DNA of 64,000 nucleotides from Paludibacterium sp. B53371 (lineage in GTDB: Bacteria; Pseudomonadota; Gammaproteobacteria; Burkholderiales; Chromobacteriaceae), in NCBI RefSeq assembly GCF_018802765.1, contig NZ_CP069163.1, positions 1,612,001 to 1,676,000 on the forward strand. Direction: 5' to 3'. A model generated the notes under the pieces. It was given only the letters and a program-made list of their open reading frames with translations, was not told the origin of the DNA and made no database searches. Both the position numbers and the translations under genes were made by a program. Shown here piece by piece: positions 43,144 to 57,718 of this stretch. Within the stretch, counting starts at the first letter, position 1. Each line of letters opens with the position of its first letter.

Positions 43144-44244
43144 TTAACGTGGATAGATTGCGCCGAGGATGCGCGGACCGCGTGCACCGGTGACCGCGGG
43201 CAGGTTGCCGGCCTGGCGCAGCAGCGCCTGACGCGCCAGCCAGGCAAAGGCCGTGGCCTCGACTTGCTGGGTTGGCAGCCCCAACTGATCCGTGTCGGCC
43301 AGGCGGCGTTGCGGCATCTGTGCCGCCAGGGCGGCCACCAGGGCCGGGTTCTGCGCGCCGCCGCCGCACAGAAAAACGTCGCGGGCCTGGTCGGCATGCT
43401 GATGGATCGCATCGGCAATGGCCTGTGCCGCCTGGGCCAGCAGGGTGGCCTGAACGTCGGCAGGACGGATTGCGGGGAAACGGCCGAGGATGGCTTGCAG
43501 CCAGGGCAGGTCGAACAGGTCGCGGCCGGTGCTTTTGGGCGGTGGGGCAGCAAAAAATGGTTCGGCCAGCAGCGCCTGCAGCAGGCCGACATGGATCTCT
43601 CCCGAGGCGGCCCATTGTCCGTCGCGGTCGAAGGGTTCACCCAGGTGCAGCCGGCACCAGGCATCCATCAGCATATTGCCCGGGCCGCAATCAAAGCCGA
43701 TGACCGGCTGCCCCGGCATCAGCAGGCTCAGATTGCTGATGCCGCCGATATTCACGATGACGCGGGCTTGTTGCGGATGAGCGAACAGGGCGTGATGGAA
43801 GGCCGGTACCAGCGGGGCTCCCTGACCGCCGGCCGCCACATCCCGGCTGCGGAAGTCGCCGACCACCTCCATGCCGGTCAGCTCGGCCAGGCGGGCCAGA
43901 TTGCCGATCTGCAGGGTATAGCCATCCTGCGGGGCATGACGAATGGTCTGGCCGTGGCAGCCGATGGCGCGGATGCGCCCGCGCAGCATGCCGGTGCGGC
44001 GCATCAGGCCGTCCACAGCTTCGGCATAGAGCGCGGCCAGCTGGTTGGCCAGCAGGGCGCTGCGACGTAGCTCATCGTGGCCGCTCTGCTGCAGTGCCAG
44101 CACCTCGCTGCGCAGCGCGGGCGGGTAGGGCAGCGCATGATCACCGCGCAGAGAAAGCCGGCCCTCGGCATCAAAAGCCACCAGCACGGCATCCACGCCG
44201 TCCAGACTGGTCCCTGACATCATGCCGATATACAGCTCTTCCAT
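43144..44244 (-). CDS. anmK: Anhydro-N-acetylmuramic acid kinase
   Basis: The 366-aa ASKHA-fold kinase opens and phosphorylates anhydroMurNAc from peptidoglycan turnover to MurNAc-6-P. Marks: N-terminal GMMSGTSLDGVDAVL (ATP loop), HGQTIRHAPQ, NIGGISNLSLL, FDCGPGNMLMDAW and CGGGAQNPALV. The start at ATG 44244 gives the normal family N-terminus (MEELYIGMMSGTS). It is divergent from the phosphoglycerate-mutase-related gene. Confidence 0.96.
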   Translation of the reverse strand: MEELYIGMMSGTSLDGVDAVLVAFDAEGRLSLRGDHALPYPPALRSEVLALQQSGHDELRRSALLANQLAALYAEAVDGLMRRTGMLRGRIRAIGCHGQTIRHAPQDGYTLQIGNLARLAELTGMEVVGDFRSRDVAAGGQGAPLVPAFHHALFAHPQQARVIVNIGGISNLSLLMPGQPVIGFDCGPGNMLMDAWCRLHLGEPFDRDGQWAASGEIHVGLLQALLAEPFFAAPPPKSTGRDLFDLPWLQAILGRFPAIRPADVQATLLAQAAQAIADAIHQHADQARDVFLCGGGAQNPALVAALAAQMPQRRLADTDQLGLPTQQVEATAFAWLARQALLRQAGNLPAVTGARGPRILGAIYPR

Positions 44245-44407
44245 CGCGTGCACCCCCAAGAAATTGTGATATTGCAACGGCCAAATGCATGAAATCGGCA
44301 ACTCAGACCGGCAAAGACGGGTAAAATACGCAAGCCCGCGAGACAGGGCAAGTCTGTCGGCACCATTCCGGCCTGCCGCCCAGTATGAAGCAAAACGAGA
44401 GACCCGC

Positions 44408-45415
44408 ATGCATCTGATTCTTTCTGTCCCCGGTCTGAGCTGGCTGGATACGCACGATGGTGGCGAAGTGGCGCGCGAACTGTCCCTGCCGGCACTGACG
44501 ACCCTGCTGGGGCGCGGCACACTGGATCTGGCCGAGCGACCGCTGTCGGCGCTGATCGGGCAGCCGTTTGGCCTCGATGGCCTGCCGCTGGCCAGCGTCG
44601 CTGCCGCGCTGGACGGTCTGGATACCCGCGAGCGCCATTGCTTGCTGGCAGATCCGGTGACCTGGCGCATCGATCGCGACCGCGCGCTGCTGGCCGATGC
44701 CGGCGTGATGCGCCTCGACCAGGCGGAAGCCGATGCCCTGGTTGCCGCGCTGAATCAGCATTTCGCTGCCGATGATCTGCAATTTCATGCCCCCACGCCA
44801 TCACGCTGGTATCTGTCGCTGCCTGAGCCTGTCCAGGCGCACTGCTACAGCCTGCCGGATGTGGTCGGCGAGAATGTGGATGATTTTCTGCCCCAGGGGC
44901 CGGATGCCTTGCGGCTTGGTCGTCTGCTCAATGAGGTGCAGATGCTGTTGTTTACGCATCCGGTCAATGAGGCACGCGAGGCGCGTGGCGAACCACGGGT
45001 CAACAGCCTGTGGCTGTGGGGCAGTGGCGCATTGCCCGCGCTGCATACCCCGCCGCTTCTGTATAGCGACGATCCCTGGCAGTGTCTGCTGGCGCGCCAG
45101 TGCCAGACAGAGAGCCAGAGCGTGCCCTGGACATTTGCGGCCTGGCTGGAGAGCGCGCCCCGGGACAATGAGGTCTGGGTGCAGCTCGACCGGTTGCAGG
45201 GGCCTGCACAGTATCGCGATGCCTGGGGGTGGCGCGAACAGGTGCAGCAGCTGGAGCAGGACTGGTTCGCCCCCTTGCTGCAGGCGCTGCGCACTGGTCA
45301 GCTCCGGCAACTGACCCTGTTGTCCTGTGGGGAGCGGTCCCTTCAGGTCCGAATCCGCCGTGTCGATTTATGGAAATTCTGGCGCCGCCCGCGAGCGCTG
45401 ACCTCACTGTACTGA
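44408..45415 (+). CDS. Phosphoglycerate-mutase-related protein (COG4255-like), function unknown
   Basis: A 335-aa protein of a proteobacterial family annotated by distant similarity to cofactor-independent phosphoglycerate mutase. It begins MHLILSVPGLSWLDTHDG and has NSLWLWGSGALP near residue 199, the most conserved motif. It lacks the complete set of alkaline-phosphatase-superfamily metal ligands as far as can be seen, so mutase activity is doubtful. TAAAAT at 44322-44327 may be its -10. It is 3 bases before recJ, so it is cotranscribed with DNA repair genes. Confidence 0.72.
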   Translation: MHLILSVPGLSWLDTHDGGEVARELSLPALTTLLGRGTLDLAERPLSALIGQPFGLDGLPLASVAAALDGLDTRERHCLLADPVTWRIDRDRALLADAGVMRLDQAEADALVAALNQHFAADDLQFHAPTPSRWYLSLPEPVQAHCYSLPDVVGENVDDFLPQGPDALRLGRLLNEVQMLLFTHPVNEAREARGEPRVNSLWLWGSGALPALHTPPLLYSDDPWQCLLARQCQTESQSVPWTFAAWLESAPRDNEVWVQLDRLQGPAQYRDAWGWREQVQQLEQDWFAPLLQALRTGQLRQLTLLSCGERSLQVRIRRVDLWKFWRRPRALTSLY

Positions 45416-45418
45416 ATC

Positions 45419-47128
45419 ATGCAAAACATTCTGACACGTCCTGTTCCGCCCGATGCCTGTGCCCACCTGGTGCAAAACGGCTATTCCCCGCTGCTGGCCC
45501 GGCTGTATGCTGCGCGCGGCATCCATCAGGCGGATGAGCTGAATGATGGCCTCGGCGCCCTGCTGCCATGGCAGACCCTGAAAAACATCCGGCCGATGGC
45601 GGCGCGGCTGGCCGATGCCATTGCCCGCCGGCAGCGACTGCTGGTGATTGCCGACTATGATGCCGACGGCGCCACGGCCTGCAGCGTGGCGGTCAAGGGG
45701 CTGAGCGCCATGGGTGCCGTGGTGGATTTTCTGGTTCCCAACCGCTTTGAATATGGCTATGGCCTGACGCCACAGATTGTCGAACTGGCGGCTGAACGTC
45801 AGCCGGATATCATTTTGACGGTCGATAACGGCATCGCCAGCGTCGATGGCGTCGCCACCGCCAGTCGCCTGGGCATCGAAACCCTGATTACCGATCACCA
45901 TCTGCCCGGCAGCCAGTTGCCGGACGCGCTGATCGTCAACCCCAATCAGCCGGGCTGTACCTTCGCCTCGCGCCACCTGGCCGGTGTGGGGGTGATGTTC
46001 TATGTGCTGATGGCGCTGCGTGCCGAGCTGCGTGAGCGTGGCCATTTTGCCGCCGGTGCCGAACCCAATCTGGCTGAACTGCTTGACCTGGTCGCGCTGG
46101 GGACGGTGGCGGATGTGGTCAGGCTGGATCAGAACAATCGTATTCTGGTAGGCAACGGCCTCAAGCGCATGCGTGCCGGACGCATGAGCCACGGTGTGGC
46201 CGCCCTGTTTCAGGTGGCTGGGCGTGCGCCGCACAAGGCGAATACCTTCGACCTCGGCTTTACCCTCGGTCCGCGCCTGAATGCCGCTGGCCGGCTGGAT
46301 GACATGAGCCTCGGTATCGCCTGCCTGCTGGCCTCGTCGACCGACAGCGCCATGTCGCTGGCCCGGCAGCTGGATGACCTCAACCGCGAGCGCCGGACCA
46401 TCGAGGCCGGCATGCGGGAAGCGGCGCTGGCCGACCTGTCCGGCATCGATCCGGCGGCACGCTATACCCTGACCCTGTTTCGCGAGGACTGGCACCAGGG
46501 GGTGGTCGGCATTGTTGCCGCCCGCCTGAAGGAGCGCTTTCATCGTCCTGCCATCGTTTTTGCCCCGGGGGACGGCGACGAGATCCGCGGCTCCGGACGT
46601 TCCATCCCGGGCTTCCATCTGCGCGATGCGCTGGACCTGGTCTACAAGCGGCAGCCCGAGTTGATCGTCAAGTTCGGCGGTCATGCCATGGCAGCGGGCC
46701 TGACCATTCGCCAGCAGGGCATGGCAGATTTTCGCGAAGCCTTCGAGCAGGTGGCGCGCGAATTGCTGGATGAAAAACAGCTCACGCGCACCATCGAAAC
46801 CGATGGCGAGCTGCCCCCGCGCGACATTTCGCTGGCACTGGCCGAGTCGTTGAGCGCCGAGGTCTGGGGGCAGGGCTTTCCGGCGCCGACCTTTCATAAT
46901 CGCTTCCAGGTGCTCAAGCAGCGCGTGGTGGGCGAAAAGCATCTCAAGCTGCGGCTGGGTAGTCGCGGTTGCGAGTTCGACGCCATGCTGTTCAATCATG
47001 CCGACTGGCTGCCCGACGAGATCGATGCGGTCTATCAGCTGGTGGCGAATGAATGGCAGGGGCGCAAGGAATTGCAAGTCTATATCGACCATTGGCGTGC
47101 CGTGGTCACTGAACCTCACGAGGCTTGA
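45419..47128 (+). CDS. recJ: Single-stranded-DNA exonuclease RecJ
   Basis: A 569-aa 5'-3' exonuclease of the DHH superfamily, used in RecFOR recombination and mismatch repair. The metal-binding motifs are all present: VIADYDADGATA (motif I, about 76), DNGIAS, LITDHHLPG (motif III DHH), GLGTVADVV-like ALGTVADVVRL, and GGHAMAAGL (DHHA1 domain). The C-terminal OB-fold domain follows. Its stop abuts the rmuC start with no gap. Confidence 0.97.
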   Translation: MQNILTRPVPPDACAHLVQNGYSPLLARLYAARGIHQADELNDGLGALLPWQTLKNIRPMAARLADAIARRQRLLVIADYDADGATACSVAVKGLSAMGAVVDFLVPNRFEYGYGLTPQIVELAAERQPDIILTVDNGIASVDGVATASRLGIETLITDHHLPGSQLPDALIVNPNQPGCTFASRHLAGVGVMFYVLMALRAELRERGHFAAGAEPNLAELLDLVALGTVADVVRLDQNNRILVGNGLKRMRAGRMSHGVAALFQVAGRAPHKANTFDLGFTLGPRLNAAGRLDDMSLGIACLLASSTDSAMSLARQLDDLNRERRTIEAGMREAALADLSGIDPAARYTLTLFREDWHQGVVGIVAARLKERFHRPAIVFAPGDGDEIRGSGRSIPGFHLRDALDLVYKRQPELIVKFGGHAMAAGLTIRQQGMADFREAFEQVARELLDEKQLTRTIETDGELPPRDISLALAESLSAEVWGQGFPAPTFHNRFQVLKQRVVGEKHLKLRLGSRGCEFDAMLFNHADWLPDEIDAVYQLVANEWQGRKELQVYIDHWRAVVTEPHEA

Positions 47129-48487
47129 ATGGAACTGCTACTGAGTCTGTTGTCCGGCGTATTGCTGGGTGGTGGTGCCTGTGTTCTGGTGCTGCGGGCA
47201 CGTGCGCAGACGGCCTATCAGCAGGGGCGTGGTGAAATGGCGGTCGAGTTCGCGACCTTGCAGGGGGAAAAACATGCCCTGCAGGCTCGCGAGGCCGATC
47301 TGCGTCAACGTCTGACGGAATGTGACACGCTGTTGACACAGTTGCGCACTCAGCTTGGCCAGCGCGAACAGGATCTGGCCAGTCTGCAGACTGCCTTGCA
47401 ACAGGAGCGTCGTCAGCACGAAGAGAAACTGGCGCTGCTGAATGAAGCGAAAGACACGCTGAGCCTGCAGTTCAAAACACTGGCCAACGATATTCTGGAA
47501 GAAAAAACCCGGCGCTTTACCGAGCAGAACAAGGAAAATATCGGCAATCTGCTGACGCCGCTGGCTGAACGGATTCAGGCCTTCAGCAAACAGGTGCAGG
47601 ATACCTATGACAAGGATTCTAAAGAGCGCCTGACCCTGGAAGTCGAGCTGAAGAACCTGCAGGCGCTCAATACCCGGCTGAATCAGGACGCGGTGGCCCT
47701 GACCAACGCCCTGACCGGCGCCAGCAGCAAGGCGCAGGGGAACTGGGGCGAGATGGTGCTGGAGCGGGTGCTGGAGACGTCGGGACTGCAAAAGGGGCGC
47801 GAATATCGCGTGCAGGTCTCCGATGTGGTCGTCGGCGAAGAGGGCAGCAGCCGCTTCCAGCCGGACGTGATTATCGACTTGCCGGAAAACAAGCAGCTGG
47901 TGGTGGACTCCAAGGTGTCGCTCAATGCGTACACCCGCTACACCCGGGCCGAGGACGAGGCCACGCGCGAGGCGGAGCTCAAGGCCCACATCCTGGCCCT
48001 GAAAACCCATATCAAGACGCTGTCGGAAAAGCGGTATCAGGACCTCTATAGCCTGAACACCCTTGATTTCGTCTTTATGTTCGTGCCGGTCGAGCCGGCC
48101 TATCTGCTGGCGGTGCAGCAGGATATGGGCCTGTTCAACGAAGCGTTCGAGAAACGCATCATGATTGTCGGGCCCAGTACCCTGCTGGCGACCCTGCGTA
48201 CCGTGGCCAGCATCTGGCGCTACGAATACCAGAACCAGAACGCTCAGGAGATTGCCCGCCAGAGCGGCGCGATGTTCGACAAGTTTGTCGGTTTTGTCGA
48301 CAGCCTGGAGAAGCTGGGCAAACAGCTGGAGACCTCTCGTGACACCTGGCAGGATGCCATGAAGAAGCTTAGCAGCGGGCGCGGCAATCTGGTGACCAGT
48401 GCCGAAAAACTGCGCAAGCTGGGCATCAAGGCTAACAAGCAGCTGCCGACGGCGCTGCTGGATGCGACGCCGGAAGAGGATGCCTGA
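47129..48487 (+). CDS. rmuC: DNA recombination protein RmuC
   Basis: A 452-aa protein with an N-terminal membrane anchor (LLLSLLSGVLLGGGACVLVL), a long coiled coil (about 40-160) and the RmuC nuclease-like domain. Diagnostic residues include NWGEMVLERVLETSGLQKG, QPDVIIDLPENKQLVVDSKV (PD-(D/E)xK-like core) and FVFMFVPVEPAYLLA. RmuC limits inversions at short inverted repeats. It starts on the base after the recJ stop, so the two are an operon. Confidence 0.96.
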   Translation: MELLLSLLSGVLLGGGACVLVLRARAQTAYQQGRGEMAVEFATLQGEKHALQAREADLRQRLTECDTLLTQLRTQLGQREQDLASLQTALQQERRQHEEKLALLNEAKDTLSLQFKTLANDILEEKTRRFTEQNKENIGNLLTPLAERIQAFSKQVQDTYDKDSKERLTLEVELKNLQALNTRLNQDAVALTNALTGASSKAQGNWGEMVLERVLETSGLQKGREYRVQVSDVVVGEEGSSRFQPDVIIDLPENKQLVVDSKVSLNAYTRYTRAEDEATREAELKAHILALKTHIKTLSEKRYQDLYSLNTLDFVFMFVPVEPAYLLAVQQDMGLFNEAFEKRIMIVGPSTLLATLRTVASIWRYEYQNQNAQEIARQSGAMFDKFVGFVDSLEKLGKQLETSRDTWQDAMKKLSSGRGNLVTSAEKLRKLGIKANKQLPTALLDATPEEDA

Positions 48488-48544
48488 CTTGGCGCCAGCG
48501 ACCGTCGCCGGCTGCTGGCACCTGCCCACCCGCCTGACGCTTGC

Positions 48545-49321
48545 TCAGTTCAGTGCACACTGCGTCAGCGCGACATTCAATTCGCCATCATCCGGGCTTT
48601 TCATGCCCAGCAGGGCAGGAATCTGCCAGCCGCCAATTTGCTGATACTGCAAGGTCGTATCGAGTGACTGCCTGGCAGCCCCTTTGCCAGCGCGTGCTGG
48701 CCAGTAGACCATCCGGCTCAGCATCCAGCCGTCCGGCGATTCCCGGAAACTCGGCAGGATGGCGTAATCCTTCTGCAGACCGGCATTGGGTGTATAGCGT
48801 GTAATCCGCCCCTGCGGATCCAGCTGCAGCTCGTCTCGGGTCTTGCCGCTGCCAATGCGGGCCTGGAAGCCATCGGCATTGCTGCGAATCTCGGCCTTGT
48901 TGGCGGCCGACGGAATAATGGCCCCACTGGTAAAACGTCCCCATAGCATCAGTGCCGTTTCGCTTGATTGCTGGATGCCGCTGACCACTTCGCGGACATC
49001 CTTGATGCTGTCTGCGCTTGCCTGTTTCGGGATGACCCCCACCGTTACCCTGACCTGATCAGGCAGGGTGAAACGCAGGGAGATCGGCATTTTGGCCATC
49101 GTCTGTGCAAAGGGGTCCTGCTGATACTCGGCCAGGCTGATGTTCAGCATCTGTGCGGTGGTCTTCGGATCGAGCTGCAACTGGCAATGAAAGCCCCTGG
49201 CCTTGGCCGCGGGCAATACATAGTACTTGCCGGCGATCTGGGCCAGCAAATCCGGACTAGTGGCCGCCAGAGCGGGCAGGGTAAAGGCAGACAACACGAG
49301 CGCGAGGGTACGAGGGTGCAT
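48545..49321 (-). CDS. Exported protein of unknown function, 258 aa
   Basis: A signal peptide (MHPRTLALVLSAFTLPALAA) is followed by a mature domain with no family I recognise. It has two cysteines (FHCQLQL near 45 and the final TQCALN) that could form a disulfide joining the two ends, and a long stretch of beta-like segments with polar repeats (LPDQVRVTVGVIPKQ, IRSNADGFQARIG). It is convergent with rmuC and borders the low-GC islet on its other side, but its own codon use matches the chromosome. Confidence 0.72.
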   Translation of the reverse strand: MHPRTLALVLSAFTLPALAATSPDLLAQIAGKYYVLPAAKARGFHCQLQLDPKTTAQMLNISLAEYQQDPFAQTMAKMPISLRFTLPDQVRVTVGVIPKQASADSIKDVREVVSGIQQSSETALMLWGRFTSGAIIPSAANKAEIRSNADGFQARIGSGKTRDELQLDPQGRITRYTPNAGLQKDYAILPSFRESPDGWMLSRMVYWPARAGKGAARQSLDTTLQYQQIGGWQIPALLGMKSPDDGELNVALTQCALN

Positions 49322-49391
49322 GGTTTATCCTGTTAGTTGTTTTGTGTGAAGCAATCTATCTTAACAGAATATTTACTCTAATGTCATTGAC

Positions 49392-49706
49392 ATGGATGCA
49401 TACCCCGTCATTGCGAAAGACCTGACCCGAACCGAACAGTGGGTTAGTCGTGTTTTAGGTGGCATGCCTAAAACTGAGCTAATGAACCAGTCAAATGTCA
49501 TCAGGTCGAACTGCCTTCCACGACTATCCAGGTTCGCCCCATGAGCTCACGTCGCATCCACCAGCAGCGATGTTGTCGATGCGCTGGTGCCAGCATACCG
49601 AAGCACGCTGGCAGAACAGTTCTATCGTCTAAAGGGCTGGCAGGGTCGCGTGATTGATGAGGAGGGACAACTGACCGTGCTTCTTGATCGAGCACCCGTC
49701 AAATAG
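49392..49706 (+). pseudogene. Decayed reading frame in the low-GC islet
   Basis: One frame runs from ATG 49392 (MDAYPVIAKDLTRTEQWVSR) to TAG 49704, interrupted by a single in-frame TGA at 49542-49544. The second half (LVPAYRSTLAEQFYRLKGWQ, then RVIDEEGQLTVLLDR) looks like real coding sequence. No family is recognised and no ribosome site is evident. A perfect 8-bp inverted repeat (GTTTTAGG/CCTAAAAC, 49452-49459 with 49467-49474) lies within it. It is probably a remnant of a transferred gene. Confidence 0.4.
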
Positions 49707-49924
49707 GCCAGTATCAGGCAACCAAATGCCATTTTTCCGATCTCATACCGCCTGTTAGTCGATTACGCCAACAGATGGAGTTACCGTTTGTTGTTGGCGG
49801 TTTCCTACATATTGCCATGACCATACATGGGAGTATTGCCAACGCCACCCATGCGGTCGCTTGAGTTCGACATTTCTGAGGCGACTGGATGAGTGTTTTT
49901 TGTGATCTCCATGAGGAAATAGGA
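49707..49924. other. Non-coding stretch upstream of the GG-leader peptide
   Basis: With the decayed frame before it, this makes a gap of about 600 bases without an intact gene. No convincing ORF or promoter is seen. It contains an 8-bp inverted repeat CGCCAACA/TGTTGGCG (49766-49773 with 49792-49799, loop 18) and AT-rich sequence. The promoter of the peptide gene should lie here. Confidence 0.5.
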
Positions 49925-50122
49925 ATGAAAGAACTGACCAACCAAGATCTGGAAAGTGTTTTCGGCGGGCAGTGCACAGGAGGTGGCAATGCCGGTTACG
50001 CCGGTGCCAGTTGCACCGTCACGGTTTATGAGAACAAAAACCTATCCTTGCAGGCGTCCCTCTCCGCCAACACCCGAACGGGCATTACCGGTGGCGGGGT
50101 AGGTTTCAAGATTGGTTTCTAG
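49925..50122 (+). CDS. Double-glycine-leader bacteriocin-like peptide
   Basis: A 65-aa peptide. Residues 1-15 (MKELTNQDLESVFGG) match the GG-leader consensus LSxxELxxIxGG of class II bacteriocins and peptide pheromones, so cleavage is expected after Gly15. The mature 50 residues start QCTGGGNAGYAGASC, with two Cys 13 apart and a Gly/Ser/Thr-rich body ending GGGVGFKIGF. GAGGAAATAGGA is a good ribosome site. No C39-peptidase transporter lies in the window; instead a retropepsin-like gene follows after an attenuator-like hairpin. GC content is clearly below the genome level. A secreted antimicrobial or signalling peptide is the best reading. Confidence 0.75.
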   Translation: MKELTNQDLESVFGGQCTGGGNAGYAGASCTVTVYENKNLSLQASLSANTRTGITGGGVGFKIGF

Positions 50123-50150
50123 CCAATATGACTAGCGATTGATTGGCATG

Positions 50151-50185
50151 AGGGGCTATTGACGGAGGGCTTGTCAATGGCCCTT
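50151..50185 (+). terminator. Attenuator-like hairpin between the peptide and the protease-like gene
   Basis: A 13-pair stem (50151-50163 with 50173-50185, two G-T wobble pairs) with a 9-base loop, followed by TTCTTT. It lies 28 bases after the peptide stop and 38 bases before the next start. Partial termination would give much peptide mRNA and less of the downstream gene. Confidence 0.65.
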
Positions 50186-50223
50186 TTCTTTGTGAAATGG
50201 TTCGGTTACGTGACGAGGGTGAG

Positions 50224-51165
50224 ATGAGATCGGTCAATTCGATATTGATTTGGTTAGCATTGACTAAAGTGGCTTTGGCGACTGAGCTTGGTTTCGACAA
50301 GATAGGGGATCTGGACATGACGTCTGGCAGGCCGGTGGTGATCGCACAGGTGGCTGGTGAGACTGTAGGTGTTGTGCTGGATACTTCCGCATCCGAGGCT
50401 GTCCTTCTGGAGGGGTTTGCCAAAAAAAAAGGACTCTTGATGCCAGGGCGCACCCCGGAGGATGGCGGCCTCTTTCTGTCCGCAGGGAAAGACATCCCTG
50501 TTGTTCTCGGCAAACATGAGTTCCGACTGCAAGAGGTGATGGTTTTGTCAGACCAGGGTCGCTATGACATAAAAAATGCAGGATTAGTCTTAAATCCGAA
50601 TGCAATCAACTGTCAACACTGCCTGATTGTTCTTGATTATATTGGCCGGGTGTTTGCGTTGGCGAATAGCACGGACATCAAAGCGGTCGAGCAGGCGCTG
50701 AGCGAGCCGTATGGGAAACTGGTCCGGGCTTCTGCCGAGATGCATGTTCTAGAAAATAATGCTGCGCTCTATATGAGCAGTGTCAGCCTTGGGGCCGGGG
50801 TGACGTCCGTTCTGCTAGATACCGGATCGAACTATACGACTTTCTTGAAAGTCGCAATACCGAATCAGGTCAGGATGGCCGGCAAGTCGTTAATCAGAAT
50901 GAAAGATGCCCGGATGACCGTGCATGAAACTGAGCCGGTTTCCATTCGTGTCAATCAGACGGAAATTGCCAAGACAGCTGTGCGGGTGGAGCCTGCGAGT
51001 TCATTTGCCCATTACTATGTCACTTATGGCAATTTTGCCTACTTTCCCCATCAAGGCAGCATTGGGATGGATGTGTTGAGGAACTGCATACTGGCCATCG
51101 AGCCCAAGAAGACCGTGCATTTGCTTTGTCGGAAAGTTGCCGACAGGCGCACGAGTGTTTCCTGA
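50224..51165 (+). CDS. Exported retropepsin-like aspartic protease family protein
   Basis: A 313-aa protein with a hydrophobic N-terminus (ILIWLALTKVALA, likely signal peptide) and two related halves. Each half has a retropepsin-type motif: VGVVLDTSASEAVLLEG (about 51-67) and SVLLDTGSNYTTFL (about 195-208). The second half ends with GSIGMDVLRNCILAIEP, the Gly-hydrophobic strand typical of pepsin/retropepsin lobes. A bilobal DTS/DTG pair could form one active site as in pepsins. GAGGG lies before ATG 50224. GC is low (about 40-45% in many lines), like the neighbouring GG peptide. Inferred role: processing, export or immunity for that peptide; a free-standing protease is the alternative. Confidence 0.7.
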   Translation: MRSVNSILIWLALTKVALATELGFDKIGDLDMTSGRPVVIAQVAGETVGVVLDTSASEAVLLEGFAKKKGLLMPGRTPEDGGLFLSAGKDIPVVLGKHEFRLQEVMVLSDQGRYDIKNAGLVLNPNAINCQHCLIVLDYIGRVFALANSTDIKAVEQALSEPYGKLVRASAEMHVLENNAALYMSSVSLGAGVTSVLLDTGSNYTTFLKVAIPNQVRMAGKSLIRMKDARMTVHETEPVSIRVNQTEIAKTAVRVEPASSFAHYYVTYGNFAYFPHQGSIGMDVLRNCILAIEPKKTVHLLCRKVADRRTSVS

Positions 51166-51185
51166 TGTTTATTTGGGATGATGGC

Positions 51186-52547
51186 TTAGTCCGCCGCCTT
51201 CAATGTCAGCACCACCCTCAGTCCGCCGCCCGGGCGGTCTTCCAGCCGGACATCGCCATGCTGGGCGCGGGCAATGGCACGGGCAATGGCCAGTCCCAGC
51301 CCGCTGCCGCCGGTGCTGCGCGCCCGCGAGGATTCCAGTCTGAAGTAAGGTTCAAACACCTGGTCACGCAGCTCGGGCGGGATGCCCGGGCCGCGGTCTT
51401 CAATCATCAGTGTCACCGTCTGACGGGTGCTTTCCACCGTCAGGTCGATGTCTTCCCCGGCGTAGCGCCGGGCGTTTTCTAGCAGGTTGCCAAGGCAGCG
51501 GCGCAGGGCCTGAGGCTGTGCCAGCACCGGACGGCCCGCTTGCCCATGCAGGGCAATGCGGGCGCCCAGTGCTTCAAAATCCTCCACCAGGCTTTCGAGC
51601 AGGATGTCGAGGTTCAGCTTGACGACCGGTTCGCTGCTCTGGCCCGCACGCAGGAAGTCGAGCGTGTGGCCGATCATGCTGTCCATTTCGGACAGATCCA
51701 TTTCGATACGTTCCCGCAGTGTCGGGTCGGCAATCTGCTCAAGGCGCAGTCGCAATCGGGTGATGGGCAGGCGCAGGTCGTGCGAGACGCCGGCCAGCGC
51801 CTGCGACCGGGTTTCCAGGTAGCTCTTCAGCTCACGTTGCATGCGATTGAAGGCGGCGGCGGCTCGCACCACTTCGCGCGGACCGGTTTCTGGCAGCGGG
51901 GGCTGATCCAGGTTGCTGGCCAGGCCGGATGCCGCATCCGCCAGTGCGGCCAGCGGCCGGGTCAGACGGCGGACCAGCCAGCTGGCCAGGATGGCCACCG
52001 TCAATGCCAGCACCCAGAGGAGCAGCAGGGTGCGGGCGGGCCAGTTGCGTGGCGTCGGCGGAATGGCATGGCGCCAGCTCAGGACAGTGCCATCCTGCAG
52101 CCGTGCCTGCACCACCAGGAAAGGCGTCAGCATCGGGCCATGTTCCGGTGCCTGTGATAGCGGCGTACCCGGTGGTGCCATGGGGCGCAGCTCGATCGGC
52201 AACACCTGGATGTCCAGCTTGCCGCTGGCGGCATCACGAAAGGTTTCTACCAGCAGATGGTCGCCGGTGGACGCTTCGCGTGCTTTGCCCCAAGGCTCTG
52301 CCAGGGTAAAGAAGTTGCCGGGTTCGTTCAGGATCAGCAGCAGGCGCTCGCGTTCGCCGGCCGGCGTGCGCGCCAGCATGTTGGCAATGCCGGCCAGTCG
52401 TTCGGCTGCACTTTCACCTCGCAGCTGCGCGCCAAAATGGTCACGGTCTTCCAGCAGCAGCCAGGCACCGAAACCTTGAGCCAGGATCAGGCTGATCACC
52501 ACTGCAAGCAATAACTGACCGGTCAGGGTTCGCGGCAGCCGCTTCAA
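51186..52547 (-). CDS. Sensor histidine kinase, CpxA/EnvZ-like
   Basis: A 453-aa membrane kinase with two transmembrane helices (about 10-30 and 170-188) around a 140-residue periplasmic domain, a HAMP domain, a DHp H-box AGVSHDLRLPITRLRLRLE with the phosphorylated His, and an HATPase domain (NLLENARRYA, EDRGPGIPPEL, GGSGLGLAIA). Its start overlaps the response-regulator stop by 4 bases (ATGA). With Spy-like genes divergent from the pair, it most resembles an envelope-stress sensor. Confidence 0.93.
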   Translation of the reverse strand: MKRLPRTLTGQLLLAVVISLILAQGFGAWLLLEDRDHFGAQLRGESAAERLAGIANMLARTPAGERERLLLILNEPGNFFTLAEPWGKAREASTGDHLLVETFRDAASGKLDIQVLPIELRPMAPPGTPLSQAPEHGPMLTPFLVVQARLQDGTVLSWRHAIPPTPRNWPARTLLLLWVLALTVAILASWLVRRLTRPLAALADAASGLASNLDQPPLPETGPREVVRAAAAFNRMQRELKSYLETRSQALAGVSHDLRLPITRLRLRLEQIADPTLRERIEMDLSEMDSMIGHTLDFLRAGQSSEPVVKLNLDILLESLVEDFEALGARIALHGQAGRPVLAQPQALRRCLGNLLENARRYAGEDIDLTVESTRQTVTLMIEDRGPGIPPELRDQVFEPYFRLESSRARSTGGSGLGLAIARAIARAQHGDVRLEDRPGGGLRVVLTLKAAD

Positions 52548-53272
52548 GTCAGCCGCTCCACCGTGGTGGCCAGCATGTAGCCGCCGTTGCGAACCGTCTT
52601 GATCAGTTGCGGATCTCGGGCGTCGTCACCCAGACGGCGACGAATGCGCGAGATCAGCACATCAACCGTACGGTCAAAGGGCGAGGCTTCGCGACCGGCC
52701 AGCCCGTCGAGCAGTTGATCCCGGGACAAGACATGATTGGGGTGCTCGGCCAGCAGACACAGCAAGGTAAATTCTGCGCCAGTGAGCGGAACGACTACGC
52801 CGTCGGCACCAATCAGGTGGCGTGCCCCCAGGTCCAGTGTTCGTCCGGCAAACAGCAGTTGCCTTGCCTTGCTGGCCAGCTCGCCGCTCTGGCTGCGTCG
52901 CAGAATGCTCTTGACGCGCGCCAGCAGCTCGCGCGGGTTGAACGGTTTGGGCAGATAGTCATCGGCGCCCATTTCCAGGCCGATGATACGGTCAATATCA
53001 TCGCCACGGGCAGTGAGCATCAGGATGGGCAGGGTGGATTCGGCGCGCAGCGAGCGGCACAGCGACAAGCCGTCTTCTCCCGGCAGCATCAGGTCCAGAA
53101 TGATCATGTCGGGCTTTTGCTCGGCACATTGCGCACGCATCTGCTCGCCATCGGCCGCAATGCTGACCAGATAACCTTGTTGCTTCAGGTAATCGCCCAG
53201 CAGTCGCGTCAGTTCGGGGTCGTCATCGACCAGCAGAATGCGCCGGGGCATGGTGTCGTTCCGTGTAGTCAT
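52544..53272 (-). CDS. OmpR/CpxR-family response regulator
   Basis: A 242-aa protein with a receiver domain (ILLVDDDPELTRLL, phospho-acceptor Asp in MIILDLMLPGEDG, Lys in YLPKPFNPRELLARV) and a winged-helix DNA-binding domain (about 145-240, DRTVDVLISRIRRRLGDD). The start is either ATG 53272 or 53251 (MPRRILLV); neither has a strong ribosome site. It is divergent from the Spy-like pair with 157 bases between, which carry TTTAC repeats resembling a CpxR box. Confidence 0.94.
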   Translation of the reverse strand: MTTRNDTMPRRILLVDDDPELTRLLGDYLKQQGYLVSIAADGEQMRAQCAEQKPDMIILDLMLPGEDGLSLCRSLRAESTLPILMLTARGDDIDRIIGLEMGADDYLPKPFNPRELLARVKSILRRSQSGELASKARQLLFAGRTLDLGARHLIGADGVVVPLTGAEFTLLCLLAEHPNHVLSRDQLLDGLAGREASPFDRTVDVLISRIRRRLGDDARDPQLIKTVRNGGYMLATTVERLT

Positions 53273-53334
53273 GGGGCGTTAGCATAACGACTCTCACTCC
53301 TTTTGTGGCCGGGATTAATGCCCGATAGCAGAAG

Positions 53335-53383
53335 ATTACAACTCATTTACAATGGGACATCCTCATTAAAAAATCTATTTACA
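53335..53383. promoter_or_regulatory. CpxR-like direct repeats between the response regulator and Spy-like genes
   Basis: ATTAC (53335-53339), TTTAC (53346-53350) and TTTAC (53378-53382). The first two are 11 bp apart, one helical turn, and the third is 32 bp further on. The complement of TTTAC-N5/6-TTTAC is the CpxR consensus GTAAA-N5-GTAAA. Site and gene content fit autoregulation and control of the Spy-like genes. Confidence 0.55.
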
Positions 53384-53429
53384 TAACTAGTTTTCAATAG
53401 GGGCTCCTCTCTCACAAAAGGATGTTCCG

Positions 53430-53915
53430 ATGAAAACCGCTCATACGCTGCGTGTCACGTTTGCTTCCGTCTTGTTGATGGCCGGTCTGGCCGCCCAGGC
53501 GGCCGATCTGCCTGCCAGTGCCCCCGTGCCGGCTTGCCCTCCGCGTCACAGCGACATGCGGCAAGCCATGCAGCAGCACCAGCAGAAGCGCCTCGATCAA
53601 CTGGCCCAGGCCCTGAAGTTGCGCCCCGCCCAGCAGGCGGCATGGCAGGCCTATACACAGGCCGAGCTGGCACTGCCGCCCGCACCGGCCTGCCCGAGCG
53701 CAGCGCCTACTGCGCCTGACATGGCCCGTGCCCGGGCCGAGCATGCCCGTCTGATGGCCGAGCACTTTGCTGCCTCCAGCAAGGCCTTGTCGGCACTGTG
53801 GCAGCAACTGACCCCAGAACAACGCCAGACCTTCGACAAGCTGGCCCGTCAGCACATGCCGCGCCACGGCATGATGGATCATCCGCATGGCGAACCCGGC
53901 CCGATGCCGCAATAA
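53430..53915 (+). CDS. Periplasmic Spy/CpxP-like LTxxQ protein (copy 2)
   Basis: A 161-aa protein with a signal peptide to AAQAAD (about residue 24), a Pro-rich start and helices with the family motif LKLRPAQQAAWQAY and LTPEQRQTFDKL. The C-terminus is His/Met/Pro-rich (RHGMMDHPHGEPGPMPQ), which suggests metal binding. AAAAGGA lies before the ATG. It is divergent from the CpxAR-like pair and upstream of a third LTxxQ gene. Likely an envelope-stress chaperone or feedback inhibitor. Confidence 0.83.
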   Translation: MKTAHTLRVTFASVLLMAGLAAQAADLPASAPVPACPPRHSDMRQAMQQHQQKRLDQLAQALKLRPAQQAAWQAYTQAELALPPAPACPSAAPTAPDMARARAEHARLMAEHFAASSKALSALWQQLTPEQRQTFDKLARQHMPRHGMMDHPHGEPGPMPQ

Positions 53916-53983
53916 CCCGAATGCGGGCCGGAAGCGCTGCCGGCCCGGCTTTTCTGCTCTTCCGTTGCAAGGAGATCACTGAT

Positions 53984-54448
53984 ATGCGAACCCTGTTTGC
54001 CACACCGCTTCGCCTCATCCAGCTGGGGGCACTGGCCCTGACCTTGTCCGCCGCGGCCTATGCCGACCCGTCGCTTGGCCTCAATCGCAGTCCGTGCCTG
54101 GCGGCGATGGAACAAGTCAGTCGCGACATGTCACGGCAACTGGATCAGATCGAGACCGATCTGGCCCTGCAGCCCTGGCAACATCAGCCCTGGCGTCGTT
54201 TTGCCGCAGATGCCCTGACCGTGGCTCAGCCACTTGACGCCCCGGTAGCCGGTGCCAGCCCGGCGGTGCTGCAGCAATATCGCATTGACTGCGCGCGCAA
54301 GATGCAGCTGCGCCTTGATTTGTCCGGACAAAGTGCGCGCGCACTCTGGACGGTTTTGACGCCGGTGCAGCGTGCGCGCTTCGAGACCCTGATGCAGAAG
54401 GGCATGATGGATCAGGCTACGTCCGCCAGGTCCGCTCTGTCAGTTTGA
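53984..54448 (+). CDS. Periplasmic Spy/CpxP-like LTxxQ protein (copy 3)
   Basis: A 154-aa protein with a signal peptide to AAAYADP (about 29) and LALQPWQHQPWRRF followed by LTPVQRARFETLMQKGMM. It has two cysteines (SPCLAAM, DCARKM) that may form a disulfide, absent from copy 2. AAGGAGA lies before ATG 53984, 68 bases after copy 2, so the two share a transcript. It is the most divergent of the three LTxxQ proteins. Confidence 0.78.
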   Translation: MRTLFATPLRLIQLGALALTLSAAAYADPSLGLNRSPCLAAMEQVSRDMSRQLDQIETDLALQPWQHQPWRRFAADALTVAQPLDAPVAGASPAVLQQYRIDCARKMQLRLDLSGQSARALWTVLTPVQRARFETLMQKGMMDQATSARSALSV

Positions 54449-54514
54449 GCGGCAAACCGGGTGTGCAGGCTGCGCGGGCAGGGTAGAATGGCGAAAAACT
54501 CCAGGAGCCCTGCC

Positions 54515-55240
54515 ATGACTTGCAAACTGAGCGTCAACCTGAACAAGATTGCCCTGATCCGCAACGCACGCGGACGTGATTTCCCCTCCGTCGAACACTT
54601 TGCCCGCCTGGCCCTGCAATGCGGTGCGCATGGCGTCACCATTCATCCGCGTCCGGATCAGCGCCATGCGCGCTATGCCGATATTGCCCTGCTGCAGCAG
54701 GTGACTCGAGCCTTCCCGGGCACAGAGCTGAATGTCGAGGGCTATCCGGATGAAACCTTTCTGGAGCAGGTCATTGCGGTACGGCCGGATCAGTGCACGC
54801 TGGTGCCGGATGCGCCGGGCCAACTGACCTCAGACCATGGCTGGGACCTGACCCGCCATCTGGATTTCGTCCGCGATGTCGTGTCACGCCTGCGCGCAGC
54901 CGGCATTCGCAGCAGTATTTTCATGGATCCGGACGCGGCCCAGATCGCCCTGGCGCCGGCGACCGGCGCGGATCGTATCGAGCTGTATACCGAGGGCTAT
55001 GCCCATGCGCCGGGCAGCGAGAGCCTGGCACCCTATGCCGCCAGTGCACGCCAGGCGGCAGCGCTGGGGCTGGGCGTCAATGCCGGTCATGACCTGAATC
55101 TCGATAATCTCGCGGCCTTTGTGGCGGCGGTCCCTGAAGTGGCTGAGGTGTCGATCGGTCATGCACTGACCGTGGAAGCCCTGCAGTTTGGCTTCGCCGA
55201 AACCGTTCGCCGCTATGTCGACATTCTGAAAACGCACTGA
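54515..55240 (+). CDS. pdxJ: Pyridoxine 5'-phosphate synthase, divergent type
   Basis: The 241-aa TIM-barrel enzyme condenses DXP with 3-amino-1-hydroxyacetone phosphate to PNP. Active-site residues are kept: the loop HPRPDQRH (His and Arg), ELNVEG (Glu) and GVNAGHDLNLDN (His). The N-terminus reads SVNLNKIALIRNARG, not the usual VNIDHVATLRQARG, and HLREDRRH is HPRPDQRH; both features recall the PdxJ type found in Bacteroidetes and some other groups. AGGAG lies before ATG 54515. It is convergent with and abuts the GGDEF/EAL gene. Confidence 0.9.
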   Translation: MTCKLSVNLNKIALIRNARGRDFPSVEHFARLALQCGAHGVTIHPRPDQRHARYADIALLQQVTRAFPGTELNVEGYPDETFLEQVIAVRPDQCTLVPDAPGQLTSDHGWDLTRHLDFVRDVVSRLRAAGIRSSIFMDPDAAQIALAPATGADRIELYTEGYAHAPGSESLAPYAASARQAAALGLGVNAGHDLNLDNLAAFVAAVPEVAEVSIGHALTVEALQFGFAETVRRYVDILKTH

Positions 55241-57718
55241 TCACCTCACATGATGCGCGCCGCCATGGCGCGCATAGCCCCGCGTCAATGCGTTAAGCAA
55301 GCTCGTTTCCTCAATCGGTTGTGCGATGGTCGCCACGGTCTCCGGCAAGTGATCCTCGTGGTCGGGCGTTCCCAGCAAAATGCCGCTGGTCGAGGGGTAC
55401 ATGCTGGTGATGCGTGTCAGAAAGGCACTGCCGCGCATTTCCGGCAATCCCTTGCCGACCACCACCACGCCGATTTCATGCGTTGCCATCAGCTCGAAAG
55501 CCTGCTGGGCCGTTTCGGCGGCCAGAATCTGGTAATCCGCCGTGGCCAGCCAGGGGCGGGCCTGTTGCAGACTGTCGCCTGTCGGGTCATACCACAGCAG
55601 ATAATGCGGGTGATAGCGTCTGCTGGTCGGCGGCAGACGTTTGCCGCTGGCCAGCAGATCCCCGCAGGCTGCCGCAGAGACCGGACGGCTGAAATAGTAG
55701 CCCTGGATGATGTCGCAACCCGCCTCGGCCAGCAGCGTCAGCTGCCCCTCGGTTTCCACGCCTTCCGCCACGACCGACAGGTGCAGCAGGTGTCCCATCG
55801 CCACCACCAGCTGTGAAATCACCAGATCATCCGGCAGCGAGGTGATTTCACGAACAAAACTCTGGTCGATCTTCAGCTTGTCGACCGGGAAACGCTTCAG
55901 ATAGCTCAGATTGCAAAAGCCGGTACCAAAGTCATCAATGGACATCTGCACCCCCATTTCGCGCAAGGCCTCCATGGTGGCCAGCGTCGCAACGGGGTTA
56001 TGCATGGAGGCCGATTCGGTCAGCTCCAGCTCGAGCCACTGCGGGTCCAGCCCGCTTTGCGCCAGAGCCTGCCGGATGGTGTCTGCCAGCCCCGGCTGCG
56101 ACCACTGTAAAGCAGACAGATTGACCGCCACCGGAACCGGCGGCAACCCGCTTTTTTGCCAGCGCACGGCCTGACTGCAGGCCAGGTCGAGTGCCTTGTC
56201 GCCCAGCGCGGCAATCAGACCGCAAGATTCGGCCAGCGGAATGAAGCGCATGGGGCCGAGCAGCCCCAGTCGCGGGTGTTGCCAGCGCATCAGTGCCTCC
56301 AGGCCGACAATGCGCCCGCTACGTATCTCGGCCTGGGGTTGATAGTCGAGGTAAAGCTGATTGTCAGCGGACAGGGCCTCATGCAGCTCGCCCTCCAGCT
56401 CCAGCCGCATCCGGGCCTCATCGGAGAGCAGGGGCTGATAAATATGGTAGCTTTCGGCCTGCTGCTGAATGGCGCGATGCAGTGCCATGGTCGCGGCCTG
56501 CAGGGTCTCTTCCGGATCGGTTTCGGTCTCGCAGAAGGCGACCCCCAAATGGGCCGTGAGGTAAAAACTGCGCTCGTTGAGTACATAAGGCTGATGTAGC
56601 CGGGTCAGCATTTCCTGCAGCGACAGGTCGAGGTTTTCTTCCGAATTGGCGGCACACAGCAGGGCAAAGCCGTCATCGCCGACCCGCGCCAGGCAATCAC
56701 CGCCGAGTTGCCAGGTCAGCAGACGGCGCGAGACTTCGCGCAACAGGCGATTGGCGGCTTCATTGCCTAGGCTGTCGCGTACATCTTGCAGACGCGTCAG
56801 TCCGACCATGACCAGTGCCGTGCGACCGTTGGTGCCGCTGGCCAGGCTGCGCATGCGCAGCAGCAATAATTCCCGATTGGGCAGGCCGCTGGCGCTGTCG
56901 AAGTGACGCAGGTAGTAGGCCTGTTGCTCGGCTTCTTCCTGGGCAGTGACATCCAGACCGGACACGACAGCAACGCCTGCACTGTCTGTCTGCACGGTCA
57001 GGCGGGCCGCCGACCACAGCACTACCCGGCCATTGACGGTGGCACGCCAGGAGAGCGGCTGGGCTTGCTCGGCCTGGCAGACCTGCTGGAGCAAGGTGTG
57101 GACATGCTGGCGTTCATCCTCGCGGGCAAAGACCGCGGCAAACGCCTGGCCCTCGACCTGAAACTCGCCCGCCAGCGGCAGGCAGGCTGCGGGGTTGGTA
57201 CGCACGATGGCGCCCTGCTCATCGACCAGAACGATCAGGGCGCCCGAGGTGTCGAGGACGGCGCTGAGTAGTTGCCGCTCGGTATGGAGCTGTTGCTGCA
57301 TCGACGCACGGATCCGGGCGTCATCGGCCTCGGCCAGGGCGCGCAGGACCGCAATCGGCAGACGTTGCAGATTGCCTTTGAGGACATAGTCAGAAGCCCC
57401 GACATGCAGCATTTCGACCGCTCGCTCTTCGCCGAGCGAGCCAGTGACAAAGATGAAGGGCAGGTCGGGCGCCAGCATGGCGCGCAGAATCAGCGCCGAG
57501 AGGCCGTCAAAATCGGGCAGTGAAAAATCCGACAGGATGATATCCAGCGAATCCGGCCGGCTGAGGTGCTCGCGGAATGACGACTCATCCTTCACCAGAC
57601 TGACGTCAATAGTCAGCCCGGCCTGGCGCAGCACCCGGCAGGTTTCCTCCGCATCTTCGACCACATCTTCCAGGAGCAAGATGCGAATCGTGCGGTTATG
57701 AAACGCACTCATGGACAT
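55241..57718 (-). CDS. REC-PAS-GGDEF(degenerate)-EAL signalling protein with C-terminal receiver-like domain
   Basis: An 825-aa protein. An N-terminal receiver (about 10-130; ILLLEDVVEDAE, phospho-Asp in LSDFSLPDFDG) is followed by a PAS-like region (about 145-265), a GGDEF domain whose motif is RVGDDGFA and so not catalytic, and an EAL domain with EAL (GLEALMRW), DDFGTGFCNLSYL, KIDQSFV and AEGVET, all consistent with active c-di-GMP phosphodiesterase. The last 110 residues resemble a second receiver that has lost its Asp ([11 protein letters not shown]). The start may be ATG 57712, which has GGGG 8 bases upstream. Likely lowers c-di-GMP under phosphorelay control. Confidence 0.9.
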   Translation of the reverse strand: MSMSAFHNRTIRILLLEDVVEDAEETCRVLRQAGLTIDVSLVKDESSFREHLSRPDSLDIILSDFSLPDFDGLSALILRAMLAPDLPFIFVTGSLGEERAVEMLHVGASDYVLKGNLQRLPIAVLRALAEADDARIRASMQQQLHTERQLLSAVLDTSGALIVLVDEQGAIVRTNPAACLPLAGEFQVEGQAFAAVFAREDERQHVHTLLQQVCQAEQAQPLSWRATVNGRVVLWSAARLTVQTDSAGVAVVSGLDVTAQEEAEQQAYYLRHFDSASGLPNRELLLLRMRSLASGTNGRTALVMVGLTRLQDVRDSLGNEAANRLLREVSRRLLTWQLGGDCLARVGDDGFALLCAANSEENLDLSLQEMLTRLHQPYVLNERSFYLTAHLGVAFCETETDPEETLQAATMALHRAIQQQAESYHIYQPLLSDEARMRLELEGELHEALSADNQLYLDYQPQAEIRSGRIVGLEALMRWQHPRLGLLGPMRFIPLAESCGLIAALGDKALDLACSQAVRWQKSGLPPVPVAVNLSALQWSQPGLADTIRQALAQSGLDPQWLELELTESASMHNPVATLATMEALREMGVQMSIDDFGTGFCNLSYLKRFPVDKLKIDQSFVREITSLPDDLVISQLVVAMGHLLHLSVVAEGVETEGQLTLLAEAGCDIIQGYYFSRPVSAAACGDLLASGKRLPPTSRRYHPHYLLWYDPTGDSLQQARPWLATADYQILAAETAQQAFELMATHEIGVVVVGKGLPEMRGSAFLTRITSMYPSTSGILLGTPDHEDHLPETVATIAQPIEETSLLNALTRGYARHGGAHHVR

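What the first reader, a model, noticed from the sequence alone, without database searches (positions are those of the whole stretch)
49925..51165. Double-glycine peptide paired with an exported retropepsin-like protein across an attenuator
The 65-aa peptide has a classical GG leader, but the next gene is not the usual C39-peptidase transporter. It is an exported protein with two aspartic-protease motifs (DTS and DTG). A hairpin between them would make the peptide more abundant than the protease. The pair is low in GC compared with its surroundings, as expected for transferred antagonism genes. An aspartic protease as maturation, activation or immunity factor for a GG peptide would be a new arrangement.
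Basis: partly seen in the sequence, partly recalled or inferred. Interest (0 to 1): 0.8.

Follow-up and report, generated by a model that had tools for sequence, protein, structure and literature searches.

The report
Double-glycine peptide with exported protease-fold partner
A small inserted gene pair in a bacterium encodes a bacteriocin-like peptide and an apparently exported protein that resembles aspartic proteases; the pair recurs in one related genome where one of the two protease motifs has lost its key residue, so the partner may bind or neutralise the peptide rather than cut it.

Summary
In detail: a 65-aa peptide with a ribosome-binding site and 15-residue double-glycine leader (49925-50122), a 313-aa apparently exported protein with DTS and DTG motifs (50224-51165), a strong hairpin between them, and the lowest GC of 311 sampled stretches. 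The two genes recur together in one other genome of the genus (inferred Paludibacterium), at another site; here they lie in a 2.7-kb insertion. A C39 exporter exists elsewhere (0.92 Mb away), is syntenic in the second pair-bearing genome (79% identity), and there stands beside a peptide with the same leader register, so export in trans is plausible. The partner's first lobe resembles retropepsins above all shuffles, the second barely; in the relative the second-lobe aspartate is valine. The hairpin is not conserved. Late find: the mature peptide resembles the end of YadA-type outer-membrane anchors (hhalign 90%, 0 of 100 shuffles; biased sample, no Pfam match). Best reading: a mobile microcin-like peptide with a cognate periplasmic immunity/binding protein on a tandem-retropepsin scaffold (0.42). 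Searches of an open-licence paper library found no report of the pairing.

The parts
49925..50122 (+). 65-aa double-glycine peptide gene; leader residues 1-15, predicted mature part Q16-F65 with Cys17 and Cys30
   Evidence: Open frame with ribosome-binding site; homologue 49-53% identical in G002 with both Cys and GG kept; shared leader register; mature part resembles YadA-type anchors
49925..49969 (+). 15-residue leader, cut predicted after Gly15
   Evidence: Same register in 7 other peptides of the fetched genus loci, 3 of them in C39-exporter neighbourhoods
50150..50186 (+). terminator-like hairpin between the two genes
   Evidence: not seen in the gap of the G002 pair
50224..51165 (+). apparently exported 313-aa partner with two retropepsin-like lobes (open frame from 50197 gives 322 aa)
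   Evidence: Homologue 33-36% identical in G002; profile comparison: lobe 1 and full length above all shuffles, lobe 2 reached by 1 of 100
50380..50388 (+). lobe-1 DTS motif (DTT in G002)
50818..50826 (+). lobe-2 DTG motif (first residue is Val in G002)
48488..51185 (.). insertion between two conserved genes (by my reading rmuC and a sensor kinase) that carries the pair and one further protein (48545-49321, minus strand)
   Evidence: In G002 and G003 the aligned flanks are 78 and 86 bases apart

Best explanation
A mobile two-gene module. The first gene makes a small secreted microcin-like peptide (about 50 residues, one possible disulfide) whose 15-residue GG leader is cut, and which is exported, by a C39 exporter encoded 0.92 Mb away. 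The second gene makes a periplasmic protein on a tandem-retropepsin scaffold that binds its own peptide and protects the producer. Shown: both genes, their recurrence together, the insertion, the exporter and its synteny, the shared leader register, the loss of one motif aspartate in the relative. Inferred: export by that exporter, antibacterial action, binding, immunity.
For: Both genes found in 2 of 101 genomes searched, the own one and G002, same order and orientation. Insertion relative to G002 and G003; lowest GC of 311 stretches; in G002 the pair lies on another contig with other flanking genes. The exporters of G000 and G002 are 78.8% identical with the same neighbours on both sides; the best exporters among those compared in G003, G004 and G005 are 58.1, 57.4 and 59.4% identical to the G000 one and gave no hit to the hut-type neighbours. 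In G002 a GG peptide of the same register lies just upstream of that exporter's adaptor gene. The lobe-2 aspartate is lost in G002 while four cysteines (two in CQHC) and the GMD motif are kept, which fits binding better than catalysis. Another kind of GG-peptide locus in the same two genomes also places each peptide next to a dedicated 313-351-aa protein with a hydrophobic start, twice in G002 and with a partial second copy in G000.
Against: Only two independent copies. Known class II microcin immunity proteins are 51-216 aa with predicted membrane helices, and known cores are 60-90 aa (PMC10233263, passages). The window copy keeps both Asp motifs. The hairpin after the peptide would lower partner expression, unusual for immunity. 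PF13650 finds no match in the own genome at E up to 0.01, so the fold assignment rests on profile comparison. Exporter matches to NCBIfam exporter models are all below curated cut-offs among those shown. 4 of the 14 C39 hits in G003-G005 were not compared. Six genus genomes are too few for statistics.
Confidence: 0.42

Rival explanations
1. Proteolytic immunity: the partner is an active two-lobed aspartic protease that destroys its own peptide in the periplasm; the G002 copy is decayed or only binds.
For: Window copy keeps DTS and DTG; lobe 1 is retropepsin-like; a peptidase gives immunity to microcin C (PMC10233263, passage).
Against: Lobe-2 Asp is Val in G002 although the protein is kept as one open frame.
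Confidence: 0.18
2. The peptide acts at or in the outer membrane as an adhesive, matrix or signalling peptide rather than a killer, and the partner is its periplasmic chaperone or receptor.
For: The mature part resembles the last strands of YadA-type membrane anchors; gonococcal GG peptides act in autolysis, not killing of competitors (PMC11798529, passages).
Against: Linkage one-to-one on an insertion is more typical of toxin-immunity pairs (general knowledge); the G002 peptide is less anchor-like against the one anchor not picked by the peptide search (148 of 2000 shuffles as good).
Confidence: 0.2
3. Maturation or activation: the partner trims the peptide after export.
For: Retropepsin-like, apparently exported protein in the same unit as the peptide.
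Against: A C39 exporter is present in trans; the two Asp motifs are not both conserved.
Confidence: 0.12
4. Unrelated neighbours carried together on one insertion.
For: The insertion holds a further protein, 48545-49321; four tandem-retropepsin loci elsewhere had no GG peptide in the fetched stretches.
Against: The two genes recur in the same order at another site in G002; the further protein had no match in any fetched locus outside the window's own genome.
Confidence: 0.08

Closest known systems
Class II microcin / colicin V type systems (CvaC-Cvi-CvaB-CvaA; description from PMC10233263, passages)
   Same: GG-leader peptide, C39-ABC exporter and adaptor in the genome, one partner gene next to the peptide
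   Different: Exporter encoded 0.92 Mb away; partner is a 313-aa apparently exported retropepsin-like protein; core about 50 aa
Bacterial retropepsin-like proteins (Asp_protease_2 PF13650; RloA of Pseudomonas, PMC12239564, passages)
   Same: Lobe 1 aligns with their D-T-[GSA] region; one weak out-of-genus hit of the partner profile (L058) is such a protein; G036, same family, encodes a 312-aa tandem one
   Different: Below Pfam cut-offs; second lobe weak; G002 copy lacks the second Asp; RloA forms dimers; no GG peptide seen near the tandem members examined
YadA-type membrane anchor (PF03895)
   Same: Mature peptide aligns with the last strands and ends in an aromatic residue
   Different: No Pfam match for the peptide itself; GG leader and 65 aa instead of a large autotransporter
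Gonococcal nap island (PMC11798529, passages)
   Same: Horizontally acquired GG peptides with an immunity-like gene in a Neisseria
   Different: nap carries its own C39 peptidase and export channel; NapI resembles LagC

Membership tests
Class II microcin system | double-glycine leader by sequence register | tested here: met
Class II microcin system | match to a curated GG-leader or bacteriocin model | tested here: not met
   Bacteriocin_IIc E 0.21; TIGR03949 E 0.01, below cut-off; not listed by TIGR01847 at E up to 10
Class II microcin system | C39-peptidase ABC transporter and adaptor in the genome | tested here: met
   PF03412 over cut-off at 122.7 bits; adaptor matches HlyD models below curated cut-off
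Class II microcin system | exporter encoded next to the peptide | tested here: not met
   0.92 Mb apart
Class II microcin system | small inner-membrane immunity protein of 51-216 aa | tested here: not met
   Adjacent protein is 313 aa, hydrophobic stretch only at its start by reading; size range from PMC10233263
Class II microcin system | TolC channel | not tested
   no search made
Class II microcin system | antibacterial activity and self-immunity | not testable with these tools
   needs bench work
Retropepsin-like proteases | curated Pfam match | tested here: not met
   PF13975 E 0.008, 17.2 bits (cut-off 28.2); PF13650 E 0.015; RVP E 0.052; none for the G002 copy
Retropepsin-like proteases | profile similarity above shuffled controls | tested here: met
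   Lobe 1: 0 of 100 (hhalign probability 39.7%); full length against four tandem proteins: 0 of 60 (40.6%); lobe 2: 1 of 100 (1.8%)
Retropepsin-like proteases | two D-T-[GSA] motifs conserved | tested here: not met
   Window DTS and DTG; G002 DTT and VTG
Retropepsin-like proteases | three-dimensional fold | not testable with these tools
   structure prediction switched off
YadA-type membrane anchor | curated Pfam match of the mature peptide | tested here: not met
   none at E up to 10 for either peptide
YadA-type membrane anchor | profile similarity above shuffled controls | tested here: inconclusive
   hhalign against 3 anchors 89.8%, 0 of 100 shuffles; 2 of the 3 anchors were found by the peptide profile itself; against the third alone 33.3%, 0 of 100; pairwise against the third: window peptide 0 of 2000, G002 peptide 148 of 2000

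The most novel reading that the evidence does not exclude
A mobile bacteriocin module in which the peptide mimics the closing beta-strands of an outer-membrane anchor, and so acts on outer-membrane protein assembly or inserts in the outer membrane, while its immunity protein is a periplasmic tandem-retropepsin scaffold whose old substrate groove traps the strand-like peptide; a shared chromosomal C39 exporter serves several such modules.
Probability: 0.15. Interest if true: 0.85.

Novelty: new variant of a known kind. Interest (0 to 1): 0.6.

Why it matters
Immunity proteins of Gram-negative GG peptides are described as small membrane proteins found by position (PMC10233263, passages). A retropepsin-fold binding or immunity protein would be a new solution to self-protection and would show a protease fold turned into a binder. 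A peptide that resembles an outer-membrane anchor end would point to a testable target. Export in trans means that such peptides are missed by searches that require a neighbouring transporter.

Tried and rejected
Homologues: none in plasmids or viral contigs; PDB sequences gave only E 0.47-0.84 for the single protein, among them SIV protease at residues 45-70, and 0 for the profile. PHROGs only E 0.086 and worse, PADLOC 0. The phage collection was not searched. Class sample: 1 of 369, the own genome. Order sample with the partner profile: 9 of 399 at E up to 0.1, own plus eight weak hits; order sample with the peptide profile: 12 of 399 at E up to 0.05, own plus eleven weak hits. At these E-values several chance hits are expected in 399 genomes. 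My first look covered 5 of 8 and 5 of 11, and two of the partner loci were viewed on the wrong strand; re-reading all 19 on the right strand showed that 1 of 8 (L058) is a true retropepsin-like protein and 2 of 11 (L067, L070) are YadA-type anchors; one more (L060) has DTA but no second signature; I saw nothing meaningful in the rest. First genome-contig scan: none confirmed. Direct lobe 1 to lobe 2 comparison: no signal. GG peptides beside tandem retropepsins: none by the strict pattern in stretches around four loci; one C39-like motif in L116 judged chance. Conserved attenuator: not supported. The first degenerate pattern gave five places; in the four loci I scanned no credible GG peptide was seen. 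No tRNA in 44000-56000; one sub-threshold Rfam match judged chance. One control run timed out without output and was repeated smaller.

Full report
What is there. The window lies in a one-contig genome of 3.63 Mb. The genus is inferred as Paludibacterium: contig C120 of G002, same genus, carries the DNA of record NZ_JAFAND010000051.1, a Paludibacterium MAG. A second record with identical DNA over 12,752 bases is titled Burkholderiaceae, so the label is not beyond doubt. The 65-aa peptide (49925-50122) has a ribosome-binding site and a leader ending in GG at residue 15. The partner frame runs 50197-51165; the start at 50224 gives 313 aa with a signal-peptide-like N-terminus. Export is a reading of the sequence, not a program result.

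More than chance? The leader register M..h....h..[VIL].GG with a ribosome-binding site occurs 8 times in 460,635 bases of window and fetched loci, 0 times in the reversed sequence and 0 in five mononucleotide shuffles: the two pair peptides, three peptides in C39-exporter neighbourhoods (L044, L047, L051) and three in a row in G003. The loci were partly chosen around exporters and GG hits, so this is not a genome average. Against it, curated leader models match weakly or not at all.

Recurrence. Partner and peptide were each found in 2 of 101 genomes, the own one and G002. Peptide identity is 49-53%, partner identity 33-36%. The species collection gave two identical loci, counted as one. The copies differ most at third codon positions (peptide 0.40, 0.31, 0.63; partner 0.53, 0.42, 0.67), as expected of protein-coding genes under selection.

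Mobility. In G002 and G003 the flanks align with 78 and 86 bases between them, where the window has about 2.7 kb with the pair and one further protein; the G001 stretch aligned only over part of one flank and is uninformative, and G004 and G005 were not examined. The names rmuC and sensor kinase for the flanks are mine from the sequences. The G002 pair lies on another contig, next to a phospholipase-D-like gene. GC is the lowest of 311 stretches.

Exporter. The own genome has two PF03412 hits. One, at 740 kb, is a C39-ABC protein beside an HlyD-type adaptor gene. Matches to NCBIfam exporter models shown are below curated cut-offs, the best being an NHLP bacteriocin exporter model, so 'colicin V type' is my label. 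It has the same neighbours in G000 and G002 (hut-type genes on one side, a fumarase-like gene on the other; names recalled, not searched) and is 78.8% identical between them. Exporters compared in G003, G004 and G005 are 47.9-59.4% identical for the closer type and 31.0-36.9% for the others; 10 of 14 C39 hits in these three genomes were fetched and compared, and G001 has none. In G002 a 55-aa GG peptide lies just upstream of the adaptor gene. Export in trans is the simplest reading. The finding's own refutation test is thus half met: a C39 transporter exists elsewhere, yet the pair stays together.

The partner. Pfam matches are below cut-off and absent for G002. Profile comparison with 16 retropepsin-like proteins of other genomes: lobe 1 scored 31.4, shuffle maximum 20.0, 0 of 100; lobe 2 scored 19.8, 1 of 100 as good; the whole protein against four tandem proteins 37.4, shuffle maximum 19.1, 0 of 60. 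hhalign's own probabilities are modest (40, 2 and 41%). Lobe 1 against lobe 2 gave nothing. One of eight weak order-level hits of the partner profile, E 0.005, is a true retropepsin-like protein. The assignment is likely for lobe 1 and tentative for lobe 2. Motifs are DTS and DTG in the window, DTT and VTG in G002. Four cysteines and the C-terminal GMD are shared. That weighs against a conserved protease function, with the caution of two sequences.

The peptide. Two of eleven weak order-level hits of the peptide profile (E 0.007 and 0.010, both from one genus) are the ends of YadA-type trimeric autotransporter anchors (Pfam E 5e-20 and 3e-17). The mature peptides align with the last strands, 41 and 36% identical for the window peptide, and all four end in Phe or Trp. 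Against these two and a third anchor found through them in viral contigs, hhalign gives 89.8%, 0 of 100 shuffles; against the third alone 33.3%, 0 of 100; pairwise against the third the window peptide beats 2000 of 2000 shuffles of itself and the G002 peptide fails (148 of 2000 as good). Two anchors were picked by the peptide itself from 399 genomes, and neither peptide matches the Pfam model, so this is a lead.

A second module type. A curated leader model found another GG peptide in G000 over its cut-off and sub-threshold ones in G002. These loci hold GG peptides tail-to-tail with a 313-351-aa protein of another family with a hydrophobic start (46% identical between genomes), twice in G002 and with a partial second copy in G000, and a glycosyltransferase gene. 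One peptide with one dedicated protein, in two unrelated partner families, suggests an immunity-like role; this is inference.

Mechanism. Immunity by binding 0.42; outer-membrane, matrix or signalling peptide with chaperone 0.20; proteolytic immunity 0.18; maturation 0.12; unrelated neighbours 0.08. The hairpin is strong but not seen in the G002 gap, so it may simply end the peptide transcript with some read-through.

Literature. In a library of open-licence PMC papers, searches for retropepsin with bacteriocin, retropepsin with microcin, bacteriocin immunity with aspartic protease, aspartyl protease with double glycine gene clusters, and Paludibacterium with bacteriocin held 0 papers each; one search held one unrelated paper, seen as a listing. 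Of PMC10233263, PMC11798529 and PMC12239564 I saw passages; other papers only as listings.

Noticed in passing
L113 7524-11646 (G000) and L114 8280-13167 (G002): Second GG-peptide locus type: GG peptides tail-to-tail with 313-351-aa proteins that start with a hydrophobic segment, next to a gene with a TcdA/TcdB-type catalytic glycosyltransferase domain (PF12919, E 2.8e-22 and 2.8e-21). Whether the peptides are glycosylated is untested.
   Followed up: partly
L115 9119-9991 (G003): Three consecutive GG peptides, glycine-rich with GxxxG-like repeats, with the same 15-residue leader register.
   Followed up: no
window 48545-49321: 258-aa protein with a signal-like start and no meaningful Pfam match on the same insertion, minus strand; no match in fetched loci outside the own genome.
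   Followed up: partly
window 49540-49710: Stretch upstream of the peptide with what look like gene remnants (reading of frames).
   Followed up: no
L015 and L016: Identical 12,752-base stretches in records titled Burkholderiaceae and Paludibacterium, isolates with the same name prefix, contigs of different length; perhaps a binning error.
   Followed up: partly
L047 10256-10576 (G004): 107-aa GG peptide upstream of a C39 exporter; its leader MKELTALEISIVSGG begins with the same five residues (MKELT) as the window peptide.
   Followed up: no
L009 3700-5300 (G002): Eight promoter-like sites against 2.0 expected in shuffles around the low-GC pair; not explained.
   Followed up: no
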